Shown here: in pieces, positions 21,961 through 36,885 of the stretch | Layout of the letters: every line of letters starts with the position of its first letter | Numbering within the stretch: the stretch's first letter is position 1 | Source: Acidobacteriota bacterium | GTDB lineage: Bacteria; Acidobacteriota; Vicinamibacteria; Vicinamibacterales; SCN-69-37 | Length of the DNA: 64,000 bases | Reading direction: 5' to 3' | NCBI GenBank assembly: GCA_009694745.1 | Contig: SHUF01000009.1 | Location: 1 to 64,000, forward strand | Notes under the pieces: model-generated | Databases searched by the model: none | The model's input: the letters and a program-made list of their open reading frames with translations, nothing else | Told to the model about the DNA's origin: nothing | Program-made: the position numbers and the translations under genes

Positions 21961-24006
21961 TCACCGGCGAATGAGCAGTCTGATCCCGTCAATTCTGGCG
22001 GCTTCCGACAGTGTAGCCGAGCCGCTCAGGGCGACGTGCAGGTTTGCGCCCTTGGTCGTGTCCATGATCCCGGCGTCCGTGATGATGTAGTCGCAGGGGC
22101 CCATGGCCGGCCGCACCGCTGCCGTGACTGTGACGTCCCGTGCCGCGTAGTACACGAAGTTCGTCAGGCGCACGTCCTGCAGGGCCATCGGCAGATTGAA
22201 CCGCGTGGTGGCGAAGAACCGTCGCCCGGCAGTGCATGTGACGCCGTCGCGCGCCTCACTTTGTAGCGCAGCGTCGTACACCCGCTCCTCTTTCGACTGC
22301 GGCCAGTTCGTCATCGCCGCAGTGCGTTCCACAACGCCACGGGCGTTCGCGTCGCGCGCCCAGACGCCGAAACCGATCGAACCGGCAACAACGACTACTG
22401 CAGCCGTAGCGGACATCGCGCGGGAGCGGCTGGTCGCTGCCAGTACAATCAGCCACACCAGCAGCGCAGCTGCCGCAGCCTGGAACGCTGGCAGCGGCGG
22501 GAACGGTGGCTCGGGTTCACCGGCCAGAATGGCCAGGCTGCCACCAGCAATCAGAAGCCCCGTCACACCGGCCACGGGCGTGCGCCGGTACCAGGGGAAC
22601 GAAGTTGGAAACAGGCCGACCCACGCGACGAGCGGGAAAAACACCACCCACGGCATCGCGTAGCGAAGCGACAGACCCCGCGTCCATTCGAGGCTGGTCC
22701 ACGGCGCGCCCATCAGCACCCAGATCATCACGGCGCCAGTGACGGCAATGATCATAAAGGACCACACGCGGGCTTGCACCAGGGATGACGACGCGCCGCG
22801 GAGCTTGCTCACGATCGCGTCGAGCGGCACCAGCCACATTCCAGCGATGACGAACAGATACCAGCGGCTCAACCAGATTTCAGTGAAGTAGCGTGCCCCC
22901 CCCCAGAGGTCGTAGTTGCTGGTCTCCTTCATGTCGCCCAGCACCGACAAGTACATCGACGCCCCCAACGTCACGCCCGGAAACAGCGAATCCCACACCC
23001 ACCAGTTGCGCACAAGCCAGATGCCGCCCGCGCCAAGCATCGCCACCGTTGCGCCAACCCAGACCAGCACCGACAGGCGTTCGTGCGCTCCCGACGGCGT
23101 CGTGCGTCCCCGCATGCGCTGAAGGACCAGCGCGACAACGGCCGGCAAACCCAGGAGCCCGGCCACCGGCACGCCGGTCACCTTCGTTCCCAGAAGTAAT
23201 CCGGTACACATGGCAATCAGCCACACGTCCATCGACGTTAGCCGCCGCCGCATCACCGGCGCCAAGAGCGCCACCGCAAGCGCTACTGCCGATGCCGCGA
23301 AAAAAAGATCAGCCGACATCAGGCCGGCATAACGAAACAGCCGCGTGCCAAACAAGGCAAGCGTCGCCCACGTCGCCCACGCAAGGCCCGACAGCCCCGT
23401 AAGCTGACGGAACAGATATCCCACCGAGGACACGAGCAGCAGGAACGGCAACACCATCACCACGTCGGTGAGCAGTGTCGTGTTCAGCGGCAGGATGAAC
23501 CATGCCGCGAGCATGCTCGACCCCATCGGGTACAGATGTGGCGTCGGCGGCAGCGCGAAGAGACTCGACCCTAACGCGAGATTGATGGCATTGGGCACGT
23601 GATAATGCGCAGCATCGGTGCCGCTCACTTCGAGCGTAGGCACACCTATGAGGATCCATTGCGCCACCACCGCGACCAGCGTGAGGATGGCCGCGAACTC
23701 AAGCGCGCGTGAGACGCCGTCGTCTGTCGGGGGCACTTCGGTTGTGACGGCATTGCCTCTCATGCGCCAGGCCATGCACCCATGACCTACCGCAAGAATG
23801 ACGATGGTGCGGGTGAGTGTGAGGGCGCTGGCGGCCGACAGAAAGTGGAGAACGATCGATAGACCGGCGATGCCGGCGACCATCGTTCGAAACCAGCGCT
23901 CGTCGCGCGACAGCGACGAGTCCGCCCGGTTCACCGATCGCGCGGTCAGCAGGAAGTGGCCGACCGTCGCGAAGCACCAGGCGGCAAGGGCTACGCTCGA
24001 ATCCAC
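21961..24006 (-). CDS. polytopic membrane protein, possible GT39-like glycosyltransferase
   Basis: 681 residues starting at GTG (24006), with about 12-14 hydrophobic segments up to residue 530 and a polar C-terminal domain of about 120 residues. [20 protein letters not shown] after the first segments recalls the acidic loop of dolichol-phosphate-mannose-type or ArnT-like enzymes, but I see no firm signature. Its start overlaps the end of an ABC ATPase remnant, so its original promoter region has probably been altered by that deletion. Confidence 0.5.
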
Positions 24007-24296
24007 TTCAGCAGCTCAGGCAGCGTTTCGGGCTCGAGACCACGGCCGCGATGAACTGAACCTTCTGGGCCAGGCCTTTTGAGAGCGTCTCGACCTTTTT
24101 TGTCGGCCCAATCGCCGAGTTGGAGGCGGCCAAGCCCGTCTTTGATGGCCACGTCGACCTCGGCCATCGGCTTTCCCGACCCGTTTGGCCCGATAAAGCC
24201 GTAGATCGAGCCTTCGGGCACGGTCAGGGAAACGCCGTTGACGGCCTGGTGTTCTCCGAATCGCTTTGAGACGTTATGAATGGCGATGGCACTCAT
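24003..24296 (-). pseudogene. ABC transporter ATPase remnant with internal deletions and a homopolymer frameshift
   Basis: The first 42 residues are a normal ABC domain start ([19 protein letters not shown] ... [10 protein letters not shown], Walker A). The sequence then jumps directly to the helical-domain end ([13 protein letters not shown]), skipping about 80 residues. The signature region follows in another frame: a run of six A's replaces five, and with one A removed it reads [20 protein letters not shown], the ABC signature. Walker B and everything beyond are missing, and the frame runs into the next gene. Non-functional relic. Confidence 0.8.
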
Positions 24297-24324
24297 GGGC
24301 AAACTCGGACCTCTTTGGACGGGG

Positions 24325-24357
24325 TTGACAGGCTTGTGAAAGCTTTCACATTATAGA
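24325..24357 (+). promoter_or_regulatory. promoter with embedded Rex operator for the act-cox operon
   Basis: TTGACA at 24325-24330 is a perfect -35 box; a -10-like CATTAT (18-base spacing) lies at 24349-24354. Between them, 24335-24350 is a perfect 16-base palindrome TGTGAAAGCTTTCACA. Extended by a base each side, it matches the Rex consensus TTGTGAA-N4-TTCACAA at 13 of 14 fixed positions. Rex represses respiratory genes when NAD+ is high and leaves when NADH rises. The site faces the ACIII/oxidase operon, whose first start is 150 bases downstream; the remnant ABC gene is on the other side. Confidence 0.75.
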
Positions 24358-24508: not shown

Positions 24509-25164
24509 ATGAGCCAGATTTTTCCAAAAAGCGCCAACGCTGCCGTCCGGTCGAGCCTCTTTGCGGTGCTGACCCTCGTCCTGTTCCTCGGATGGGTGGG
24601 ATTCACGTTGATGCGTTCATCGTGGCTCACCAAACAGAGCGAGTACGTCGAGCAGCCCATTCAGTTCAGCCATGCCCACCACGTGGGCGGCATCGGCCTA
24701 GACTGCCGTTACTGTCATACGTCGGTGGAGAAGTCTTCGTTCGCGGGTATCCCGCCAACCAAGACGTGCATCAACTGCCACTCGCAGATTTGGGCTACGG
24801 CACCGATTCTTGAACCCGTCAGGGCGAGTTTCCGAGACGACACGCCCATGAAGTGGAAGCGCGTGACCGACCTTCCCGATTTTGTCTACTTCAACCACCA
24901 GATTCACGTGAAGCAGGGCGTGGGATGCGCCACGTGCCACGGCCCTGTGGACAAGATGCCGCTCATCACGCAGGCCACCTCCATGCAAATGGAATGGTGC
25001 CTGGCGTGCCACCGCGAGCCTGAGAAGTTCCTGCGCCCGCGGGCCGAGGTCTTCAACATGGCCTATGAAGCGCCGGCCAACCAGATCGAACTCGGTCTGC
25101 GGCTCAAGAAGGAATACAACGTTGCCGGGATCGAACACATGACAAGCTGCTCGGTTTGCCACCG

Positions 25165-25168
<4 letters not shown>
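24509..25168 (+). CDS. actA: alternative complex III subunit ActA (pentaheme cytochrome c)
   Basis: 219 residues with one N-terminal transmembrane helix (about 15-36) anchoring a periplasmic domain. Five CxxCH heme-binding motifs are present: CRYCH 66, CINCH 87, CATCH 140, CLACH 164 and CSVCH 214, the number known for ActA of Rhodothermus marinus. It passes electrons from quinol oxidation toward the mono-heme subunit and oxidase. Its stop overlaps actB (ATGA). Confidence 0.92.
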
Positions 25169-28185
<3,017 letters not shown>

Positions 28186-28209: not shown

Positions 28210-29612
<1,403 letters not shown>

Positions 29613-29613
<1 letters not shown>

Positions 29614-30164
29614 TGGCCCACCAGGCAACGATCGAATCACCCCTTCACGGCCTGATGGCCGAGTTCGACTCGGCTCAGGCGCTGCTTGATGCCGCGCACA
29701 AAGTGCGCAGCGCGGGTTACACGCGCACCGACGCCTATTCGCCCATGCCCATTCACGGTCTGGCTGAAGCGCTCGGCATGAAGGAACGCAAAGTTGCGCC
29801 GTTTGTGCTGGCCGGAGGCATCGCCGGCATGCTCGCCGGCTACGGCCTGCAGTACTGGACGTCGGTGATTGCCTATCCGATGAACATCGGCGGGCGGCCG
29901 CTCCACTCGTGGGTGTCGTTCATTCCTGTGACCTTTGAGCTGACCATCCTGTTCGCGGCGTTTTCCGCGGGCATCTCGATGATTGTGCTCAACGGGCTGC
30001 CGCAGCCCTACCATCCCGTGTTTAATACCGCCCGTTTTTCATTGGCCAGCTCGTCGGCGTTTTTCCTCGCCATCGAAGCCACAGACCCGAAGTTCGACGC
30101 CGGGCAGACTGCCGCATTCCTGGCGAGCCTGCACCCGCGTGAGGTGGTGCCCGTTGATCACTAA
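29613..30164 (+). CDS. actD: alternative complex III subunit ActD (DUF3341)
   Basis: 183 residues. An N-terminal soluble part (LMAEFDSAQALLDAAHKVRSAGY...PIHGLAEALGM) precedes two transmembrane helices (LAGGIAGMLAGYGLQYW and VTFELTILFAAFSAGISMIV), the standard DUF3341/ActD layout. It is a membrane subunit with no cofactor. Position between actC and actE is conserved in ACIII clusters. Confidence 0.9.
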
Positions 30165-30180
30165 GTCGAGAAAGAGACCC

Positions 30181-30786
30181 ATGGGCCGCTGGACTGCCGC
30201 GCTCGGCGTGTTGCTGCTTACGGCCGCCGGCTGTCGTCAGGACATGCACGACGCGCCGCGCTACGACCCGCTCGAGGCGTCGGACCTGTTCACCAACGGC
30301 AGCTCGGTGCGGCCGCTCGTGCCGGGCACCGTGCCGCGCGGCCAGTTGAATGACGATGCGTTTCTGCATACGGGCAAGGGGCCGGACGGCCTGCCGGTCA
30401 CGGCGTTCCCGTTCGCCATTACGCACGTAGAGCTCGACCGCGGCCAGGATCGCTACAACGTGTATTGCGCGCCCTGCCACGGCCGCACCGGTGAGGGGAA
30501 CGGCATGGTGGTGCAGCGCGGGTATCGCCAGGCGCAGTCCATGCACATCGATCGCCTGAAGCTGGCGCCTGTGGGCTACTTCTACGACGTCATCACGAAC
30601 GGGTTTGGCGTGATGCCCGACTACCGCACGCAGATTCCCGTGGAAGACCGCTGGAAGATCGTCGCGTATGTGCGCGCACTGCAGCTGAGCCGCACGGCGA
30701 CCACGGCCGACATGCCGGCCGACGCCCTGGCGCGATTGCTGAAGGGTGAGCCGGCGGCCAAGGCTCCCGTGGAGATTCATCGATGA
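30181..30786 (+). CDS. actE: alternative complex III subunit ActE (monoheme cytochrome c lipoprotein)
   Basis: I chose the ATG at 30181 because it gives a proper lipoprotein signal (LLTAAGC, Cys18). One heme motif, CAPCH, lies at residue 96, with Met ligands available downstream (FGVMPDY). 201 residues, typical for ActE. It is the likely exit point for electrons to the cytochrome c domain of the oxidase encoded downstream. Overlaps actF by 4 bases. Confidence 0.9.
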   Translation: MGRWTAALGVLLLTAAGCRQDMHDAPRYDPLEASDLFTNGSSVRPLVPGTVPRGQLNDDAFLHTGKGPDGLPVTAFPFAITHVELDRGQDRYNVYCAPCHGRTGEGNGMVVQRGYRQAQSMHIDRLKLAPVGYFYDVITNGFGVMPDYRTQIPVEDRWKIVAYVRALQLSRTATTADMPADALARLLKGEPAAKAPVEIHR

Positions 30787-31991
30787 CGAGTGAGTTGAAC
30801 CCGGCGCAGATGCTCAAGGAGCGTCCCACCGCCGACCTCAGCCGGCTGAGCACCAGGGCGTTGCTCTTTGGTGGCGTGGGCGCAGCCGCCTGCGCGGCCG
30901 GGTTTTTCATGGTGGACTGGTCGCAGTTCCTCCAGTCGTACCTCATTGCGTACATGTTCTGGCTTGGGCTCACGCTGGGATCGCTGGCCCTGCTGATGAT
31001 CCAGCACCTGAGCGGCGGCGCGTGGGGCCTGGTGGGTCGGCGCATCTTCGAGGCGGCCACCCGAACGCTGCCGTTGATGGCCGTGTTGTTCCTGCCGATC
31101 GCGATGAACATGCAGACGCTGTACCTCTGGGCGCGTCCTGAAGCCGCGAACGACGCCATCCTGGTGACGAAGCAGGCGTACCTCAACGTCAACTTCTTCT
31201 ATGTCCGCGCCGTGCTGTATTTCGTGGTCTGGATGGCCCTGGCGTTCACGCTGAGCAAATGGTCGAAGGCGCAGGATGAATCCGCGCCACTCGAGCCCGG
31301 GCGCATGGACCGGCGCTTCCGCGTATTGTCGGGCCCGGGCCTGGTCCTGTTCATGCTGTCGGTCACGTTCATGAGCGTGGACTGGGTGATGTCGCTCGAC
31401 CCGCACTTCTACTCGACGATTTTCGGCGTGTTGACGGTTGGCGGGCAGTGCCTGGCGACGATCGCGTTCACGATTCTGACACTGCAGGCGCTGTCACACG
31501 CGAAACCGATTTCCGACGTGACGAACGCCGAACGGTTTCATGACTATGGCAAGTTGATGCTGGCCTTCGTCATGTTGTGGGCGTACTTCAACGTGTCGCA
31601 GTTGCTCATCATCTGGTCGGCCAACCTGCCCGAAGAAATTCCGTGGTACATCGAACGCCTGCGCGGCCACTGGGGTCCGTGGGCGGTATTCGTTCTGGTC
31701 GGCCATTTCGTGGCACCCTTTGTCTTGCTGCTCTCGCGTGACCTGAAGCGGCACGGCCGCACATTGTCGTACGTCGCGCTGTTCATCCTATTCATGCGGG
31801 TGGTGGATCTGGTGTGGACGGTGGGTCCGGTCTTCCGGCACGAGTCCACCGGACACTGGCTCGACTTTGCGATGGTGGCCGGCATGTCGCTGCCGTGGTT
31901 GTTCCTCTTCTACAGTAACCTGGGCAGCCGGGCTCTGGTCCCGGCGCACGATCCGTATTTCAAGGAGTCTGTGATCAGTGAAGGACATTAA
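30783..31991 (+). CDS. actF: alternative complex III subunit ActF (second NrfD-like membrane subunit)
   Basis: 402 residues with about ten transmembrane helices, similar in plan to ActC: GVGAAACAAGFFMVDW, SLALLMIQHLSGGAWG, FEAATRTLPLMAVLFLPIAM and later LMLAFVMLWAYFNVSQLLII and WAVFVLVGHFVAPFVLLLSR. It belongs to the quinol:cytochrome c oxidoreductase subunit-2 type. The next gene begins 14 bases before its stop. Confidence 0.88.
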   Translation: MTSELNPAQMLKERPTADLSRLSTRALLFGGVGAAACAAGFFMVDWSQFLQSYLIAYMFWLGLTLGSLALLMIQHLSGGAWGLVGRRIFEAATRTLPLMAVLFLPIAMNMQTLYLWARPEAANDAILVTKQAYLNVNFFYVRAVLYFVVWMALAFTLSKWSKAQDESAPLEPGRMDRRFRVLSGPGLVLFMLSVTFMSVDWVMSLDPHFYSTIFGVLTVGGQCLATIAFTILTLQALSHAKPISDVTNAERFHDYGKLMLAFVMLWAYFNVSQLLIIWSANLPEEIPWYIERLRGHWGPWAVFVLVGHFVAPFVLLLSRDLKRHGRTLSYVALFILFMRVVDLVWTVGPVFRHESTGHWLDFAMVAGMSLPWLFLFYSNLGSRALVPAHDPYFKESVISEGH

Positions 31992-32406
31992 TCACCTCCA
32001 CTCCGAGGACGTGCGGACCGAAGGCGACGGCATCTCGTACAAGGGGCTGGCGTGGTCGGTGATCATTCTCACGATCATCACGCTGTTCTGCTACGCGTTC
32101 GTCGTGGGGATGTTCAAGTGGATGGAGTCGCGCGCGGTGGCCAATGACGCCACGCGTTCGCCGCTCGCGGCCCCGCCCGTGCAGCCGACGATCGTGGACG
32201 GCCGTGTGGTGGGCGGCAGCACGGCGCCCGTGCCGAGCCTGCTCGTCAACGAGCCCATCAACCTCCAGAAGTTCCGGTCACACGAAGAAGAGATCCTGAC
32301 CACGTACGGATGGGTGGATCAGAACGCCGGCATCGTGCGGCTGCCCATCGATCGTGCGAAAGCCCTGCTCCTTGAGCGCGGCATTGCCGTGCGGGAGTCC
32401 CGGTGA
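31978..32406 (+). CDS. small single-span membrane protein of the act-cox operon
   Basis: 142 residues from GTG, overlapping actF. One transmembrane helix (SVIILTIITLFCYAFVVGMF, about 27-46), a Pro-rich periplasmic linker, then NLQKFRSHEEEILTTYGWVDQNAGIVRLPIDRAKALLLERG. The last part is the motif found in small proteins encoded between actF and sco in many ACIII operons; I know no assigned role. Assembly or linkage between ACIII and the oxidase is a reasonable guess. Confidence 0.65.
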   Translation: MKDINHLHSEDVRTEGDGISYKGLAWSVIILTIITLFCYAFVVGMFKWMESRAVANDATRSPLAAPPVQPTIVDGRVVGGSTAPVPSLLVNEPINLQKFRSHEEEILTTYGWVDQNAGIVRLPIDRAKALLLERGIAVRESR

Positions 32407-33287
32407 TGCACAGCCCTCGGGGATTTCGCCTCGTGTGTGTGACGGCCCTGATGGCCGTGGTCGCTGTGGTGTCTCCGGCGGCCCAGCGTTCAGCGCCAGG
32501 CTCGAGCGCCCCAGGCCAGCCGGCCATGGCGCCGCTCCCGATTCTGACCGACGTCCGCATCGACCAGAAACTCGATTTACCTGTGCCTCTGGACCTGACG
32601 TTTGTGGACGAGGCCGGCAAGAACGTGACGCTCAGCCAATACTTCGGCGCGCGTCCCGCCGTGCTCGCGCTCGTGTACTACGAGTGCCCGATGCTGTGCA
32701 CGCAGGTGCTCAACGGGTTGTTTTCGTCGCTTGAGCCGCTCAAGCTCGACGCCGGCCGCGACTTCGATATCATCGTGGTGAGTTTTGACCCGGGCGAGAC
32801 GCCGGCGATGGCGCGGGCGAAGAAGGCCAGCTACCTCAAGCACTACCAGCGGCCGACCGGCGAAGCCGGCATTCACTTCCTGACCGGCCGTCAGGCCGAG
32901 ATCGACACACTCGCCGACGCCGTCGGGTTCCGCTACGCCTACGACGAGGCGATTGATCAGTACGCCCATCCGGCGGCTGTCACGGTCCTGACGCCGAAGG
33001 GCTACGTGTCCAAGTATCTCTACGGCGTTGAATTTGCGCCCATGGACTTCCGGTTTGCCATGGTGTCGGCCGGCGAAGGCAAGATTGGCACGCTGGTGGA
33101 TCAGGCGCTGCTCTACTGTTTCCACTACGACCCCGCCACGGGCAAATACAGCGTGGCAATTATGACGTTCGTGCGTCTGGGCGGCGTGCTGACCTTGCTC
33201 GGCCTGATGGCTTTTCTTGTGGTGCACCTGCGGCGCGATCGTCGGCAGAACAGCGCGGTGGCGTCCACCGCAACGGGTATTCGGTAA
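32403..33287 (+). CDS. SCO1/SenC-family copper chaperone
   Basis: 294 residues with a signal peptide, a thioredoxin-like domain and a C-terminal transmembrane helix (GGVLTLLGLMAFLVVHL). The copper-binding motif is YYECPMLCTQVL (CxxxC at 96 and 100), and the conserved histidine is expected in the YAHPAAVTVLTP region. Sco delivers copper to the CuA site of the subunit II encoded directly downstream; the coxB ATG begins on its last base. Confidence 0.88.
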   Translation: MMHSPRGFRLVCVTALMAVVAVVSPAAQRSAPGSSAPGQPAMAPLPILTDVRIDQKLDLPVPLDLTFVDEAGKNVTLSQYFGARPAVLALVYYECPMLCTQVLNGLFSSLEPLKLDAGRDFDIIVVSFDPGETPAMARAKKASYLKHYQRPTGEAGIHFLTGRQAEIDTLADAVGFRYAYDEAIDQYAHPAAVTVLTPKGYVSKYLYGVEFAPMDFRFAMVSAGEGKIGTLVDQALLYCFHYDPATGKYSVAIMTFVRLGGVLTLLGLMAFLVVHLRRDRRQNSAVASTATGIR

Positions 33288-34273
33288 TGCAGAGCAGTTT
33301 TCCTCTGTTCCCGGAGGCCGCGTCCTCAATCGCGAGTGACGTCGACCTCCTGTATTTCTTCATTCTGGCGGTCAGCTCGTTCTTCGCCATCCTGGTGTCG
33401 GCGGCTGTGGTGTACTTTGCCATCAAGTACCGGCGGCGCCATCCAGACGAAGTGGGGCACGACATCCACGGCTCGATTGTCCTGGAACTGGTCTGGACGG
33501 TCATCCCCTTCGTGCTCGCGATGGTGATGTTCTTCTGGGGTGCCGACCTCTACTTCCGCCTGGCGCGTCCGCCGGCGGACTCGATGGAAGTGTTCGTGGT
33601 CGGCAAGCAGTGGATGTGGAAAGTGCAGCATCCCGAAGGCGTGCGCGAAATCAACGAACTCCACGTGCCCATCAACCGCAACGTGCGCATCACACTGGGC
33701 TCCGAGGACGTGCTGCACGACTACTACATCCCCGCGTTCCGCGTGAAGATGGACGCCGTGCCGGGCAAGCTGACGACGATGTGGTTTAAGGCGACGAAGG
33801 CGGGCACCTACCATATCTTCTGCGCCGAATATTGCGGCACGCAGCACTCCGGCATGATCGGCCAGGTCATCGCGATGGAGGAACACGACTACGAAGCGTG
33901 GCTTGCGGGCGGCCGCACCACGGGCACCGCAGTCGAAAACGGCGAGCGGTTGTTCACGCAGCTTGCATGCATCACGTGCCACAAGACCGACACGTCGGGC
34001 CGTGGTCCTCTGCTGGCGGGCGTCTTCGGGTCAACCGTTCAATTGATGGACGGCCGCAAAGTGGTGGCTGATGAAAACTACCTGCGGGAATCCATCATGA
34101 ATCCGCAGGCGAAGATCGTGCTGGGCTACCAGCCGATCATGCCGACGTTCCAGGGCACGGTGAGCGAAGAGAATCTGCTTCAGCTCATCGCCTATATCAA
34201 GACACTGAAGGCGCCAGCGGCCGCCCCGGCCGCCGGAGCTCCGGCGGCGGCAGGCCAACCGGGCAGGCAATAG
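33287..34273 (+). CDS. coxB: cytochrome c oxidase subunit II with fused cytochrome c domain (caa3 type)
   Basis: 328 residues. Two transmembrane helices (FFILAVSSFFAILVSAAVVY and LELVWTVIPFVLAMVMFFWG) precede the cupredoxin domain with CuA ligands in CAEYCGTQHSGM (Cys179, Cys183, His187, Met190). A C-terminal cytochrome c domain carries CITCH at 228. The fusion marks a caa3-type oxidase that accepts electrons via its own heme c, here presumably from ActE. An Ala/Pro-rich tail follows. Confidence 0.93.
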   Translation: MQSSFPLFPEAASSIASDVDLLYFFILAVSSFFAILVSAAVVYFAIKYRRRHPDEVGHDIHGSIVLELVWTVIPFVLAMVMFFWGADLYFRLARPPADSMEVFVVGKQWMWKVQHPEGVREINELHVPINRNVRITLGSEDVLHDYYIPAFRVKMDAVPGKLTTMWFKATKAGTYHIFCAEYCGTQHSGMIGQVIAMEEHDYEAWLAGGRTTGTAVENGERLFTQLACITCHKTDTSGRGPLLAGVFGSTVQLMDGRKVVADENYLRESIMNPQAKIVLGYQPIMPTFQGTVSEENLLQLIAYIKTLKAPAAAPAAGAPAAAGQPGRQ

Positions 34274-34288
34274 GGCGCAAGGATCGTT

Positions 34289-35908
34289 ATGACTCACGCT
34301 GGAAATAATTCGGGCAGTTATCTGGATGCGCCCCACGGGATCGCGTCGTGGTTGCTGACCAAGGACCACAAACGCATCGCGATCCTGTACCTGATCTCGA
34401 TCACGGTCTTCTTCATGATCGGCGGCTTGTTTGCGGCCGGTATCCGCGCGGAACTGCTGACGCCCGCCGGAGACCTGTTCACGGCCGACCTCTACAACAA
34501 GGTCTTCACGCTGCACGGCGTCGTGATGATCTTCTTCTTTCTGATTCCGTCGATTCCAGCCACACTCGGCAACTTCCTGGTGCCGATCATGTGCGGCGCC
34601 AAGGACCTGGCATTTCCCAGAATCAACCTGCTGAGCTGGTATCTGTACCTGATCGGCGCGATGCTCACGCTCGGCGCCGTGTTCATGGGCGGCGTGGACA
34701 CCGGCTGGACGTTCTACACGCCCTACAGCTCGATGGCGTCGAACACGAACGTGACGCTGGCCGCGCTCGGCGTGTTCATCGCGGGCTTCTCGTCCATTCT
34801 GACCGGGTTCAATTTCATCGTGACCGTGCACCGCATGCGCGCGCCCGGCCTCACGTGGTTCCGGATGCCGCTGTTCCTCTGGGCCATGTACGCCACAAGC
34901 CTGGTCATGATCCTGGGCACGCCGGTGGTGGCCATCACCATTCTGCTCGTCGGCGCCGAGCGTGCGCTCGGCTTCGCCATCTTTGACCCGCGCGTGGGCG
35001 GCGACCCTGTCCTGTTCCAGCACCTCTTCTGGTTCTACTCGCACCCGGCCGTTTACATCATGATCCTGCCTGGCATGGGCGTCATCAGCGAACTGGTGGC
35101 CGCGGTCTCGCGCAAACAGATCTTCGGCTACAGCGTCGTGGCCTATTCGAGCTTGGCGATCGCCATCATCGGCTTCCTCGTCTGGGGCCACCACATGTTC
35201 GTGAGCAGCCAGTCCATCTACGCCGGACTGGTGTTCTCGATCATCACGATGATCGTCGCCGTGCCTTCGGCCGTGAAAACCTTCAACTGGGCGGCGACCA
35301 TGTACAAGGGGTCGATCACCTGGGAATCGCCCACCTACTGGGTGATCGGGTTCATAGGCCTCTTCCTGGTGGGCGGTCTGACCGGCCTCTTCCTCGGCGC
35401 GATGGGCCTAGACGTCCACCTGCACGACACCTACTTCGTCGTGGCGCATTTCCACTACATCATGGTGGGCGGCGGCGTGATGGGCTTCCTGGGCGGCATC
35501 CACTTCTGGTGGCCGAAGATGACCGGGCGCACCTATCCGGAAACCGCGGGCAAGATTGCCGCGATCCTGGTGTTCGTCGGTTTCAACCTGACGTTCTTCC
35601 CGCAGTTTGTGGTGGGCTACCTGGGCATGCCTCGCCGGTACCATGCGTATCCAGAGGAATTCCAGATTCTCAACGTCATGTCCACCGGTGGCGCCACGGT
35701 GCTCGGCATAGGCTACCTGCTGATCGTCACGTATCTGGTGGCGTCGCTCTTCAAGCCGCGGAACGCATCAGCCAATCCGTGGGGCGCGACGGGACTTGAG
35801 TGGGACATCCCCTCGCCTCCGATTACGCTGAACTTCGAGACCGAGCCCATCGTCACCGAGGACGCGTACAACTACATCGGCCGCGCCCAGAAGGCGAGGG
35901 AAAACTAG
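34289..35908 (+). CDS. ctaD: cytochrome c oxidase subunit I
   Basis: 539 residues with twelve or more transmembrane helices. Canonical heme-copper features are visible: [15 protein letters not shown] (heme a His), [18 protein letters not shown] (CuB His and the cross-linked Tyr), VWGHHMFV (two CuB His) and [16 protein letters not shown] (heme a3/a His pair). It reduces O2 and pumps protons. It lies 15 bases after coxB. Confidence 0.95.
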
Positions 35909-35909
35909 C

Positions 35910-36572
35910 GTGGAAAATCCCAACGCCCCTCACGAGCCGCATCATCCGATGCTGCAGCACCATTTCTTCAACATGGGGCAGCAGCTCGAGGCCTCAGTCC
36001 TTGGGATGTGGGTGTTCCTGGTCACCGAAGTCATGTTCTTCGGCGGCCTGTTCATGGCCTACATCCTCTATCGCTCGATGTATCCCGACGCCTGGCTGGC
36101 GGGCAGCCACGAGCTCAATGAGATGCTCGGCGGTATCAACACGGTTGTCCTGATCTTCAGCTCGCTCACAATGGCGCTGGCGGTGCGCGCGGCCCAGGTA
36201 GGCTCGTGGATGGGACAGGTCGTCAACCTGATCCTCACGATCATCTTCGGCACCATCTTCCTGGTGGTGAAGTACTTCGAATACGCCGCCAAGTTCGAGC
36301 ATCACCTGGTGCCCGGCCCGTACTTCGACCCGGCGCGTGACCCGGCGCAGCAGCTCTATTTCTCGCTCTACTTCATGATGACGGGCATCCACGCCCTGCA
36401 CATGGTGGTGGGCATCGTGTTGATGCTCATCATCCTCCGCATGGCCTGGAAGGGCCGGTTCTCTGCCGAGTACTACGGCCCGGTGGAAGTGTCCGGCCTC
36501 TACTGGCACTTCGTCGACATCGTCTGGATTTTCCTCTTCCCGCTGCTGTATCTCATCGGGAAGCATCACTAA
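35910..36572 (+). CDS. ctaE: cytochrome c oxidase subunit III
   Basis: 220 residues from GTG, one base after the ctaD stop. It has the short-form subunit III helix pattern: SVLGMWVFLVTEVMFFGGLF, INTVVLIFSSLTMALAVRAA, LILTIIFGTIFLVVKYFEY, FMMTGIHALHMVVGIVLM and WHFVDIVWIFLFPLLYLIG. The EVMFFGG and GIHALHMVVG signatures are diagnostic. Non-catalytic, stabilises subunit I. Confidence 0.93.
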   Translation: MENPNAPHEPHHPMLQHHFFNMGQQLEASVLGMWVFLVTEVMFFGGLFMAYILYRSMYPDAWLAGSHELNEMLGGINTVVLIFSSLTMALAVRAAQVGSWMGQVVNLILTIIFGTIFLVVKYFEYAAKFEHHLVPGPYFDPARDPAQQLYFSLYFMMTGIHALHMVVGIVLMLIILRMAWKGRFSAEYYGPVEVSGLYWHFVDIVWIFLFPLLYLIGKHH

Positions 36573-36588
36573 CGCGCACGAGCGAACC

Positions 36589-36885
36589 ATGTCCCACATC
36601 AGCTCCAAGGGCCTTTACTACACGATTTTCGGTACGCTGATCGCCATGACGGTCGTGACCGTGGCCATCGCGCGCATTGACCTGGGTGCATTGAACACGC
36701 CGGTGGCCCTGGCCATTGCCGCCTTCAAGGCCACCCTGGTGATCCTGTTCTTCATGGGCGTCAAGTACAACACCCCGCTGACGAAGGTGGTGGCGGCGTC
36801 GGGATTCCTGTGGCTGATCATCCTCTTCGGCATCACGATGGGGGATTACTTGACCCGGGCCTGGATCGGGTTCCCGGGACGGTAG
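36589..36885 (+). CDS. ctaF: cytochrome c oxidase subunit IV
   Basis: 98 residues with three transmembrane helices (TIFGTLIAMTVVTVAIARID, VALAIAAFKATLVILFFMGV, FLWLIILFGITMGDYL). The FMGVKYNTPLTK loop is typical of bacterial caa3 subunit IV. It is the last gene of the respiratory operon; a large inverted repeat begins 4 bases after the stop. Confidence 0.9.
   Translation: MSHISSKGLYYTIFGTLIAMTVVTVAIARIDLGALNTPVALAIAAFKATLVILFFMGVKYNTPLTKVVAASGFLWLIILFGITMGDYLTRAWIGFPGR

What the first reader, a model, noticed from the sequence alone, without database searches (positions are those of the whole stretch)
24325..24357. Rex operator inside the promoter of the ACIII-caa3 operon
A perfect 16-base palindrome matching the Rex consensus lies between a consensus -35 and the -10 of a 12-gene respiratory operon. 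NADH/NAD+ control of alternative complex III by Rex is, to my knowledge, not well documented. The position between the boxes would give tight repression.
Basis: partly seen in the sequence, partly recalled or inferred. Interest (0 to 1): 0.62.

Follow-up and report, generated by a model that had tools for sequence, protein, structure and literature searches.

The report
Rex operator in ACIII-caa3 oxidase promoter
A palindrome in the promoter of a 12-gene respiratory operon is almost certainly a binding site for Rex, the bacterial NADH/NAD+ sensor, and comparison with relatives shows that the site is conserved across much of an order of Acidobacteriota, a role of Rex for which no earlier report was found in the papers searched.

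Summary
TTGTGAAAGCTTTCACAT (24334-24351) differs from the Rex consensus TTGTGAANNNNTTCACAA at one base. It fills the spacer between TTGACA (24325) and CATTAT (24349-24354), overlapping the -10 by three bases, upstream of actABCDEF-orf-sco-ctaCDE-COX4 (12 genes). Chance expectation in the window is 0.01. Of 99 actA upstream regions in the order (Vicinamibacterales), 50 carry it at <=1 mismatch and 59 at <=2; permuted palindromes give 0.0 and 0.035. Positions 7=A and 12=T are invariant in 59/59 sites, favouring Rex over CRP/FNR. The operator moves relative to the promoter between families but always covers it. The same motif precedes nuoA, atp operons, nadA and hydrogenase genes in relatives, largely the classical Rex regulon. 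A family without canonical Rex lacks the actA and nuoA sites. In one Pyrinomonadaceae genus, 3/3 Rex-positive genomes have an actA site and 0/7 Rex-negative ones do. Rex operators between -35 and -10 are known in Streptomyces; control of ACIII was not found in the literature held. Verdict: a new target of a known regulator, well supported comparatively. Binding and NADH response are untested.

The parts
24325..24330 (+). -35 element TTGACA (6/6)
   Evidence: TTGAC is conserved 2-3 bp before the site in all 32 genomes of the between-boxes group.
24334..24351 (+). Rex operator TTGTGAAAGCTTTCACAT (perfect palindrome 24335-24350)
   Evidence: 13/14 match to TTGTGAANNNNTTCACAA; chance 0.01 in the window; conserved across the order against permuted-motif controls.
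24349..24354 (+). -10 element CATTAT (4/6), spacer 18, overlapping the operator by 3 bp
   Evidence: Relatives mostly have CAT(T/C)AT at the same place with a spacer of 17-18.
24509..25168 (+). actA, multihaem cytochrome c subunit of alternative complex III
   Evidence: Pfam Cytochrome_C7 and others; start about 157 bp after the site.
25156..28185 (+). actB, molybdopterin-oxidoreductase-like plus Fe-S subunit
28210..29613 (+). actC, NrfD-type membrane subunit
29613..30164 (+). actD
   Evidence: Pfam ActD, E 3.6e-64.
29983..30786 (+). actE, monohaem cytochrome c (true start probably after 30164)
   Evidence: Pfam Cytochrome_CBB3.
30783..31991 (+). actF, by position and length; no Pfam or NCBIfam hit
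   Evidence: position only.
31978..32406 (+). 142-aa ORF of unknown function in the operon
32403..33287 (+). SCO1/SenC copper chaperone
33287..34273 (+). ctaC, caa3 oxidase subunit II with fused cytochrome c
34289..35908 (+). ctaD, oxidase subunit I
35910..36572 (+). ctaE, oxidase subunit III
36589..36885 (+). 98-aa oxidase subunit-IV-like ORF, last gene of the operon
   Evidence: by position and hydrophobic sequence only.
23991..24302 (-). Remnant of a divergent ABC-transporter ATPase gene; the other side of the intergenic region
   Evidence: Breaks off after the Walker A motif; intact 310+ aa frame in same-genus relatives.

Best explanation
The palindrome is the operator of Rex, the NADH/NAD+-sensing repressor encoded elsewhere in the same genome. 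When NADH is low relative to NAD+, a Rex dimer sits on 24334-24351, covering the spacer and part of the -10, so RNA polymerase cannot use the promoter and the ACIII-caa3 operon is held down. When NADH accumulates (oxygen or acceptor limitation, or excess reductant), NADH-bound Rex lets go and the quinol-oxidising ACIII plus caa3 oxidase are made, adding capacity to drain the quinol pool and so re-oxidise NADH. Shown here: the site, the rex gene, the conservation, the promoter geometry, the shared regulon, and the association with Rex presence. Inferred: Rex binding, release by NADH, and repression in vivo.
For: Site: one mismatch to the Rex consensus, chance 0.01. Rex: PF06971 E 2.7e-16, NCBIfam Rex subfamily above cut-off, closest PDB chains are Rex 3ikv/3ikt/1xcb at E ~1e-48, conserved recognition helix (QIRKDL) and GxGxLG nucleotide motif. 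Conservation: 50/99 actA upstream regions at <=1 mismatch and 59/99 at <=2, against 0.0 and 0.035 for 200 permuted half-site palindromes; flanks average 0.2-0.6 bit per position, the site 1.7-1.8. All 59 sites keep A7 and T12, which belong to the Rex consensus and not to the CRP one. Operator position moves from spacer/-10 (f1, f2, f3, f8, f9, f15) to just after the -10 (f12) but stays on the promoter. The exact pattern is rare: 1 reversed-control hit in 162 genomes, against 52 genomes with a real hit. Regulon: nuoA in f2, f3, f4, f8, f9, f12, f15; atpH and atpB; atpZ in the window's genus; nadA; hypA and a hydrogenase operon; a second rex paralogue's own promoter. Association with Rex: family f10, which has no canonical Rex, lacks both the actA and nuoA sites. 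Outside the order, sites at <=2 mismatches occur in 6/26 Rex+ and 0/27 Rex- genomes (Fisher p 0.010); within one Pyrinomonadaceae genus 3/3 Rex+ against 0/7 Rex- (p 0.008), and three other Rex+ families have perfect 0-mismatch sites. Precedent: S. avermitilis Rex footprints between -35 and -10 at nuoA1 (TTGTGACCTGCTTCACAT) and atpI (PMC5355995).
Against: No binding or expression data for any member of this order. Many Rex+ genomes have no site at actA: f4, f13/f14 (distant actA-like genes), part of f3, half of f12, and 20 of 26 Rex+ genomes sampled outside the order. Several draft MAGs of 81-90% completeness carry the actA site though no rex was found (G010, G016, G035, G114); this is most simply incompleteness, but not proven. 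The window's own nuo operon has no site, so the regulon in this family is reduced. The Fisher tests treat genomes as independent; the events behind them may be few.
Confidence: 0.87

Rival explanations
1. The palindrome is a CRP/FNR-family site. TGTGA-N6-TCACA is also the CRP consensus, and the genome has a cNMP-binding-domain regulator.
For: TGTGA-AAGCTT-TCACA fits CRP letter for letter. A CRP/FNR-like protein is encoded at L017:1405-1974.
Against: A7 and T12 are invariant in 59/59 sites and T1 is kept in 50/59; CRP does not need them. The site sits on the promoter, where CRP-type activators do not bind. The co-regulated set (nuo, atp, nadA, hydrogenase, a rex promoter) is Rex-like. Site presence follows Rex within a genus. 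The own CRP-like protein has a short C-terminal region and, by reading of its helix, lacks the arginine CRP uses for the outer G.
Confidence: 0.07
2. The site is a conserved Rex operator in relatives but no longer works in this species, or contributes little.
For: The window's family has lost the nuoA site, the divergent gene is a remnant in the window, and the -10 is only 4/6.
Against: Palindrome, -35 and spacing are intact and identical in the nearest relative G069; rex is intact. All specified positions but the last are kept in 13/13 family members.
Confidence: 0.04
3. The operator mainly serves the divergent ABC-transporter gene, and its place at actA is incidental.
For: In the genus an ABC ATPase gene is divergently transcribed from the same intergenic region.
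Against: The ABC gene is a remnant in the window; across families the site keeps its register with the actA-facing -35 and -10 while the rest of the region diverges.
Confidence: 0.01

Closest known systems
Rex operators (ROP) at nuoA1 and atpI of Streptomyces avermitilis (PMC5355995)
   Same: Same 18-bp motif; footprinted between -35 and -10; NADH-released repressor of respiratory operons. The nuoA1 site TTGTGACCTGCTTCACAT even shares the terminal T.
   Different: Targets there are complex I, ATP synthase, cytochrome bd and haem genes; no ACIII. Here the site overlaps the -10 rather than the -35. Different phylum.
Rex regulon as reconstructed across phyla by Ravcheev et al. 2012 (J Bacteriol 194:1145; known here only as cited in PMC5317091, paper not held)
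   Same: Generalised consensus TTGTGAANNNNTTCACAA; repression of genes of NADH oxidation.
   Different: Whether ACIII-caa3 or Acidobacteriota are covered could not be checked.
ACIII-A2 caa3 superoperon of Terriglobia (PMC8407424)
   Same: Same operon type in Acidobacteriota; transcription responds to nanomolar O2, up in one strain and down in another.
   Different: The word 'regulator' does not occur in that paper. The Terriglobales-like genomes sampled here mostly lack Rex and lack this operator.
CRP/FNR sites (TGTGA-N6-TCACA)
   Same: The core of the palindrome is shared.
   Different: Conservation of A7, T12 and T1, position on the promoter, and the regulon fit Rex.

Membership tests
Rex operator / Rex regulon | Match to TTGTGAANNNNTTCACAA beyond chance | tested here: met
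   13/14 positions; chance 0.01 in the window.
Rex operator / Rex regulon | A rex gene with both DNA-binding and NAD(H)-binding domains in the genome | tested here: met
   G000:C37, L001:1006-1713 minus; PF06971, NCBIfam and PDB matches over both domains.
Rex operator / Rex regulon | Conservation upstream of orthologous genes in related species | tested here: met
   59/99 actA upstreams at <=2 mismatches; permuted controls 0.035.
Rex operator / Rex regulon | Operator overlaps the promoter, as for a repressor | tested here: met
   Covers the spacer and part of the -10, or lies just after the -10, in all site-bearing families; promoters predicted, start sites not mapped.
Rex operator / Rex regulon | Shared motif at other classical Rex targets | tested here: met
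   nuoA, atp, nadA, hydrogenase genes in relatives. In the window genome itself only the atp and LolA/RND operons join actA.
Rex operator / Rex regulon | Site presence follows Rex presence | tested here: met
   3/3 against 0/7 within one genus; 6/26 against 0/27 outside the order; f10. Phylogenetic independence not modelled; many Rex+ genomes have no actA site.
Rex operator / Rex regulon | Rex binds the site and NADH releases it | not testable with these tools
   Needs gel shift or footprint.
CRP/FNR site | TGTGA-N6-TCACA core | tested here: met
CRP/FNR site | Free bases at positions inside the core (7 and 12 of the 18-mer) | tested here: not met
   Invariant A and T in 59/59 sites; the sites were chosen by closeness to the Rex consensus at <=2 mismatches, so this favours Rex but is not fully independent.

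The most novel reading that the evidence does not exclude
Across Acidobacteriota one NADH sensor sets the capacity of the respiratory chain (complex I, ACIII-caa3, ATP synthase, NAD synthesis). Its operator has moved relative to the promoter between families while still covering it, ACIII-caa3 is a persistent target, and an envelope operon (LolA-like protein, RND exporter, beta-barrel, metallo-beta-lactamase-fold hydrolase) is an unexpected addition.
Probability: 0.6. Interest if true: 0.55.

Novelty: new member of a known kind. Interest (0 to 1): 0.45.

Why it matters
Alternative complex III with caa3 oxidase is a main aerobic respiratory module of Acidobacteriota, among the most abundant soil bacteria, and no regulator for it was found in the papers searched. 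Rex supplies a specific, testable one, and the presence/absence pattern across the phylum makes predictions for each lineage. Since several families lack Rex or the site, it also raises the question of what replaces it there.

Tried and rejected
CRP/FNR as regulator: considered because the core is identical; rejected on invariant positions, regulon and co-occurrence. Autoregulation of the canonical rex: no site upstream; the TTGTGAA near the f12 rex start is the coding start itself. A nuoA site in the window's own genome: absent. Weaker 2-3 mismatch sites in the own genome (L005-L016): mostly inside coding sequence and near the control rate (36 real against 26 control in all at <=3 mismatches), so not counted. 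ActA paralogues (10 tested) and the distant f14 actA-like genes: no site. A CRP-like palindrome after the -10 in Terriglobales: seen in only 2 of 31 named loci outside the order that were scanned, so not a general replacement. Laying the whole genome in the Python box was not available, so genome scans used the genome search. Ravcheev et al. 2012 is not held.

Full report
Observation. The window carries TTGACA-GGC-TTGTGAAAGCTTTCACAT-TATAG at 24325-24356. The 16-bp core 24335-24350 is a perfect palindrome and the 18-mer differs from the Rex consensus TTGTGAANNNNTTCACAA at its last base only. It is the only match at <=1 mismatch in 64 kb, with a shuffle mean of 0.01. The consensus scan independently picks TTGACA / CATTAT with an 18-bp spacer as the only promoter in the 1.1 kb scanned. 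The palindrome fills the spacer and overlaps the first three bases of the -10. The operon downstream has 12 genes: actABCDEF, a 142-aa ORF, SCO1, ctaC, ctaD, ctaE and a 98-aa subunit-IV-like ORF; the next gene starts about 195 bp later.

Organism. Families and genera below are the tool's anonymous labels (f1 = the window's family).

Rex is present. One gene in the own genome (G000:C37, L001:1006-1713 minus, 235 aa) passes PF06971 and the NCBIfam Rex subfamily cut-off and matches solved Rex structures at E ~1e-48 over both domains. Its recognition helix (LNAAQIRKDLAYFG) is nearly identical in all site-bearing families of the order.

Conservation. actA or a relative was located in 151 of 162 genomes of the order and 99 orthologous upstream regions were analysed. 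50 have the consensus at <=1 mismatch, 59 at <=2 and 64 at <=3. Two hundred palindromes built from permuted half-sites average 0.0, 0.035 and 1.0. At <=2 mismatches by family: f1 13/13, f2 10/10, f9 1/1, f8 2/3, f15 6/7, f3 9/20, f12 18/36, f4 0/5, f10 0/3, f7 0/1. Ten actA paralogues have none. The distance to actA varies from about 40 to 235 bp and the flanks are little conserved (0.2-0.6 bit per position against 1.7-1.8 in the site). Genome-wide, the exact pattern TTGTGAANNNNTTCACAW occurs in 52 of 162 genomes, mostly once or twice per genome; the reversed control gives one hit in all.

Promoter geometry. In f1, f2, f8, f9 and f15 the site lies 2-3 bp after TTGAC(A) and runs into a -10 that is mostly CAT(T/C)AT, giving spacers of 17 or 18 (32/32). 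The terminal T of the 18-mer, the one departure from the Rex consensus, is the T of this -10, which may explain it. In f3 the site is asymmetric (ACGTGAAANNTTTCACAA), followed by AAT. In f12 genera such as g47, g48 and g70 it is TTG(C/A)GAAANNTTTCACAA just after a TACAAT-like -10. Every form would block polymerase; none fits a usual activator position.

Rex or CRP. The core TGTGA-N6-TCACA is also CRP's. Positions 7 (A) and 12 (T), free in CRP sites, are invariant in all 59 sites. The sites were picked by closeness to the Rex consensus, so this is supportive rather than independent.

Regulon. Sites at one to three mismatches precede nuoA in f2, f3, f8, f9, f12 and f15, 32-149 bp before it, and in f4 G045. 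Others precede atpH and the atpB operon in f3, atpZ in four of the window's own genus (G000, G069, G070, G073), nadA in f12 and f13, and hypA, a hydrogenase-like operon and a second, divergent rex paralogue in f4. Nuo and atp are proven Rex targets in Streptomyces. The window's family has lost the nuoA site. Its second strong site precedes a LolA-like / RND exporter / beta-barrel / MBL-fold operon.

Association with Rex. Family f10 has no canonical Rex: two genomes (98-100% complete) have none, three have only the divergent paralogue type (tree split, support 100/100). No actA or nuoA site is found in the f10 genomes examined. Outside the order, in a spread sample of the phylum, three Rex+ families have perfect 0-mismatch sites upstream of actA (G384, G175, G377). 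In one genus of the family that includes Pyrinomonadaceae-type records (g120), 3/3 Rex+ genomes have a site (TTGTGAAAGATTGCACAA type, 1-2 mismatches) and 0/7 Rex- genomes do (Fisher p 0.008). Over all 53 non-order genomes it is 6/26 against 0/27 (p 0.010). Most Rex+ genomes outside the order have no actA site, so the link is not universal, and relatedness is not modelled. Four draft MAGs in the order carry the site with no rex found; they are 81-90% complete.

Mechanism and direction. From established Rex biology (PMC5355995, PMC5317091): bound at low NADH/NAD+, released by NADH. ACIII-caa3 would therefore be raised when NADH accumulates. This direction is inferred. In Terriglobia the corresponding superoperon rises at nanomolar O2 in one strain and falls in another (PMC8407424), but the Terriglobales-like genomes sampled mostly lack Rex, so this is not evidence for the present case.

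Literature. A full-text search for Rex with alternative complex III gave four papers; the one opened, on Caldithrix, discusses both but does not link them. Rex with Acidobacteria gave nothing relevant by title. The main comparative Rex study (Ravcheev 2012) is not held, so priority is not certain.

Noticed in passing
L446:364-5705 (G000:C42): Second strong Rex-like site of the genome (TTGTGAAACATTTCACAC) precedes LolA_like, an HAE3/HpnN-like RND exporter, a beta-barrel-like protein and an MBL-fold hydrolase; similar targets in f1, f2 and f12, with an ABC transporter instead in f3. Why an NADH sensor would control an envelope export operon is unexplained.
   Followed up: partly
L065, L066, L070, L072-L074, L077, L079-L081, L104, L146 (f12 actA upstreams): About a dozen f12 genomes have a strikingly conserved TTGATCCTTTTTTCACAANATGGTACAA promoter: one Rex half-site (TTTCACAA) kept and the other replaced by a -35-like TTGATC. 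Possibly a decayed or half-site operator.
   Followed up: no
window 23991-24302 minus: The ABC-transporter ATPase divergent from actA is a remnant in the window (breaks off after Walker A) but an intact 310+ aa frame in same-genus relatives.
   Followed up: partly
L333, L334, L345: nadA (quinolinate synthase) carries a Rex-like site in f12 and f13, which would link NAD synthesis to the NADH/NAD+ ratio in this order.
   Followed up: partly
L340, L443-L445, L440-L442: A divergent second Rex (recognition helix (A/S)QVRRDL) occurs in f4, f8 and f10; in G045 it has TTGTGATAGATTTCACAA in its own promoter and lies beside oxidoreductase genes of a formate dehydrogenase-like kind.
   Followed up: partly
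L215, L233, L358: Some Terriglobales-like genomes have a CRP-like palindrome TCGTGA-N5..6-TCAC just after a TATAAT -10 upstream of actA.
   Followed up: partly
L017:1405-1974 (G000:C60): The own CRP/FNR-like regulator is short (189 aa), with an apparently shortened DNA-binding region.
   Followed up: no
L182 (VFZF01000001.1) = G071, L187 (VFZG01000046.1) = G078: Public records labelled Acidimicrobiia are, by their contigs here, members of this acidobacterial order; the submitter label is apparently wrong.
   Followed up: no
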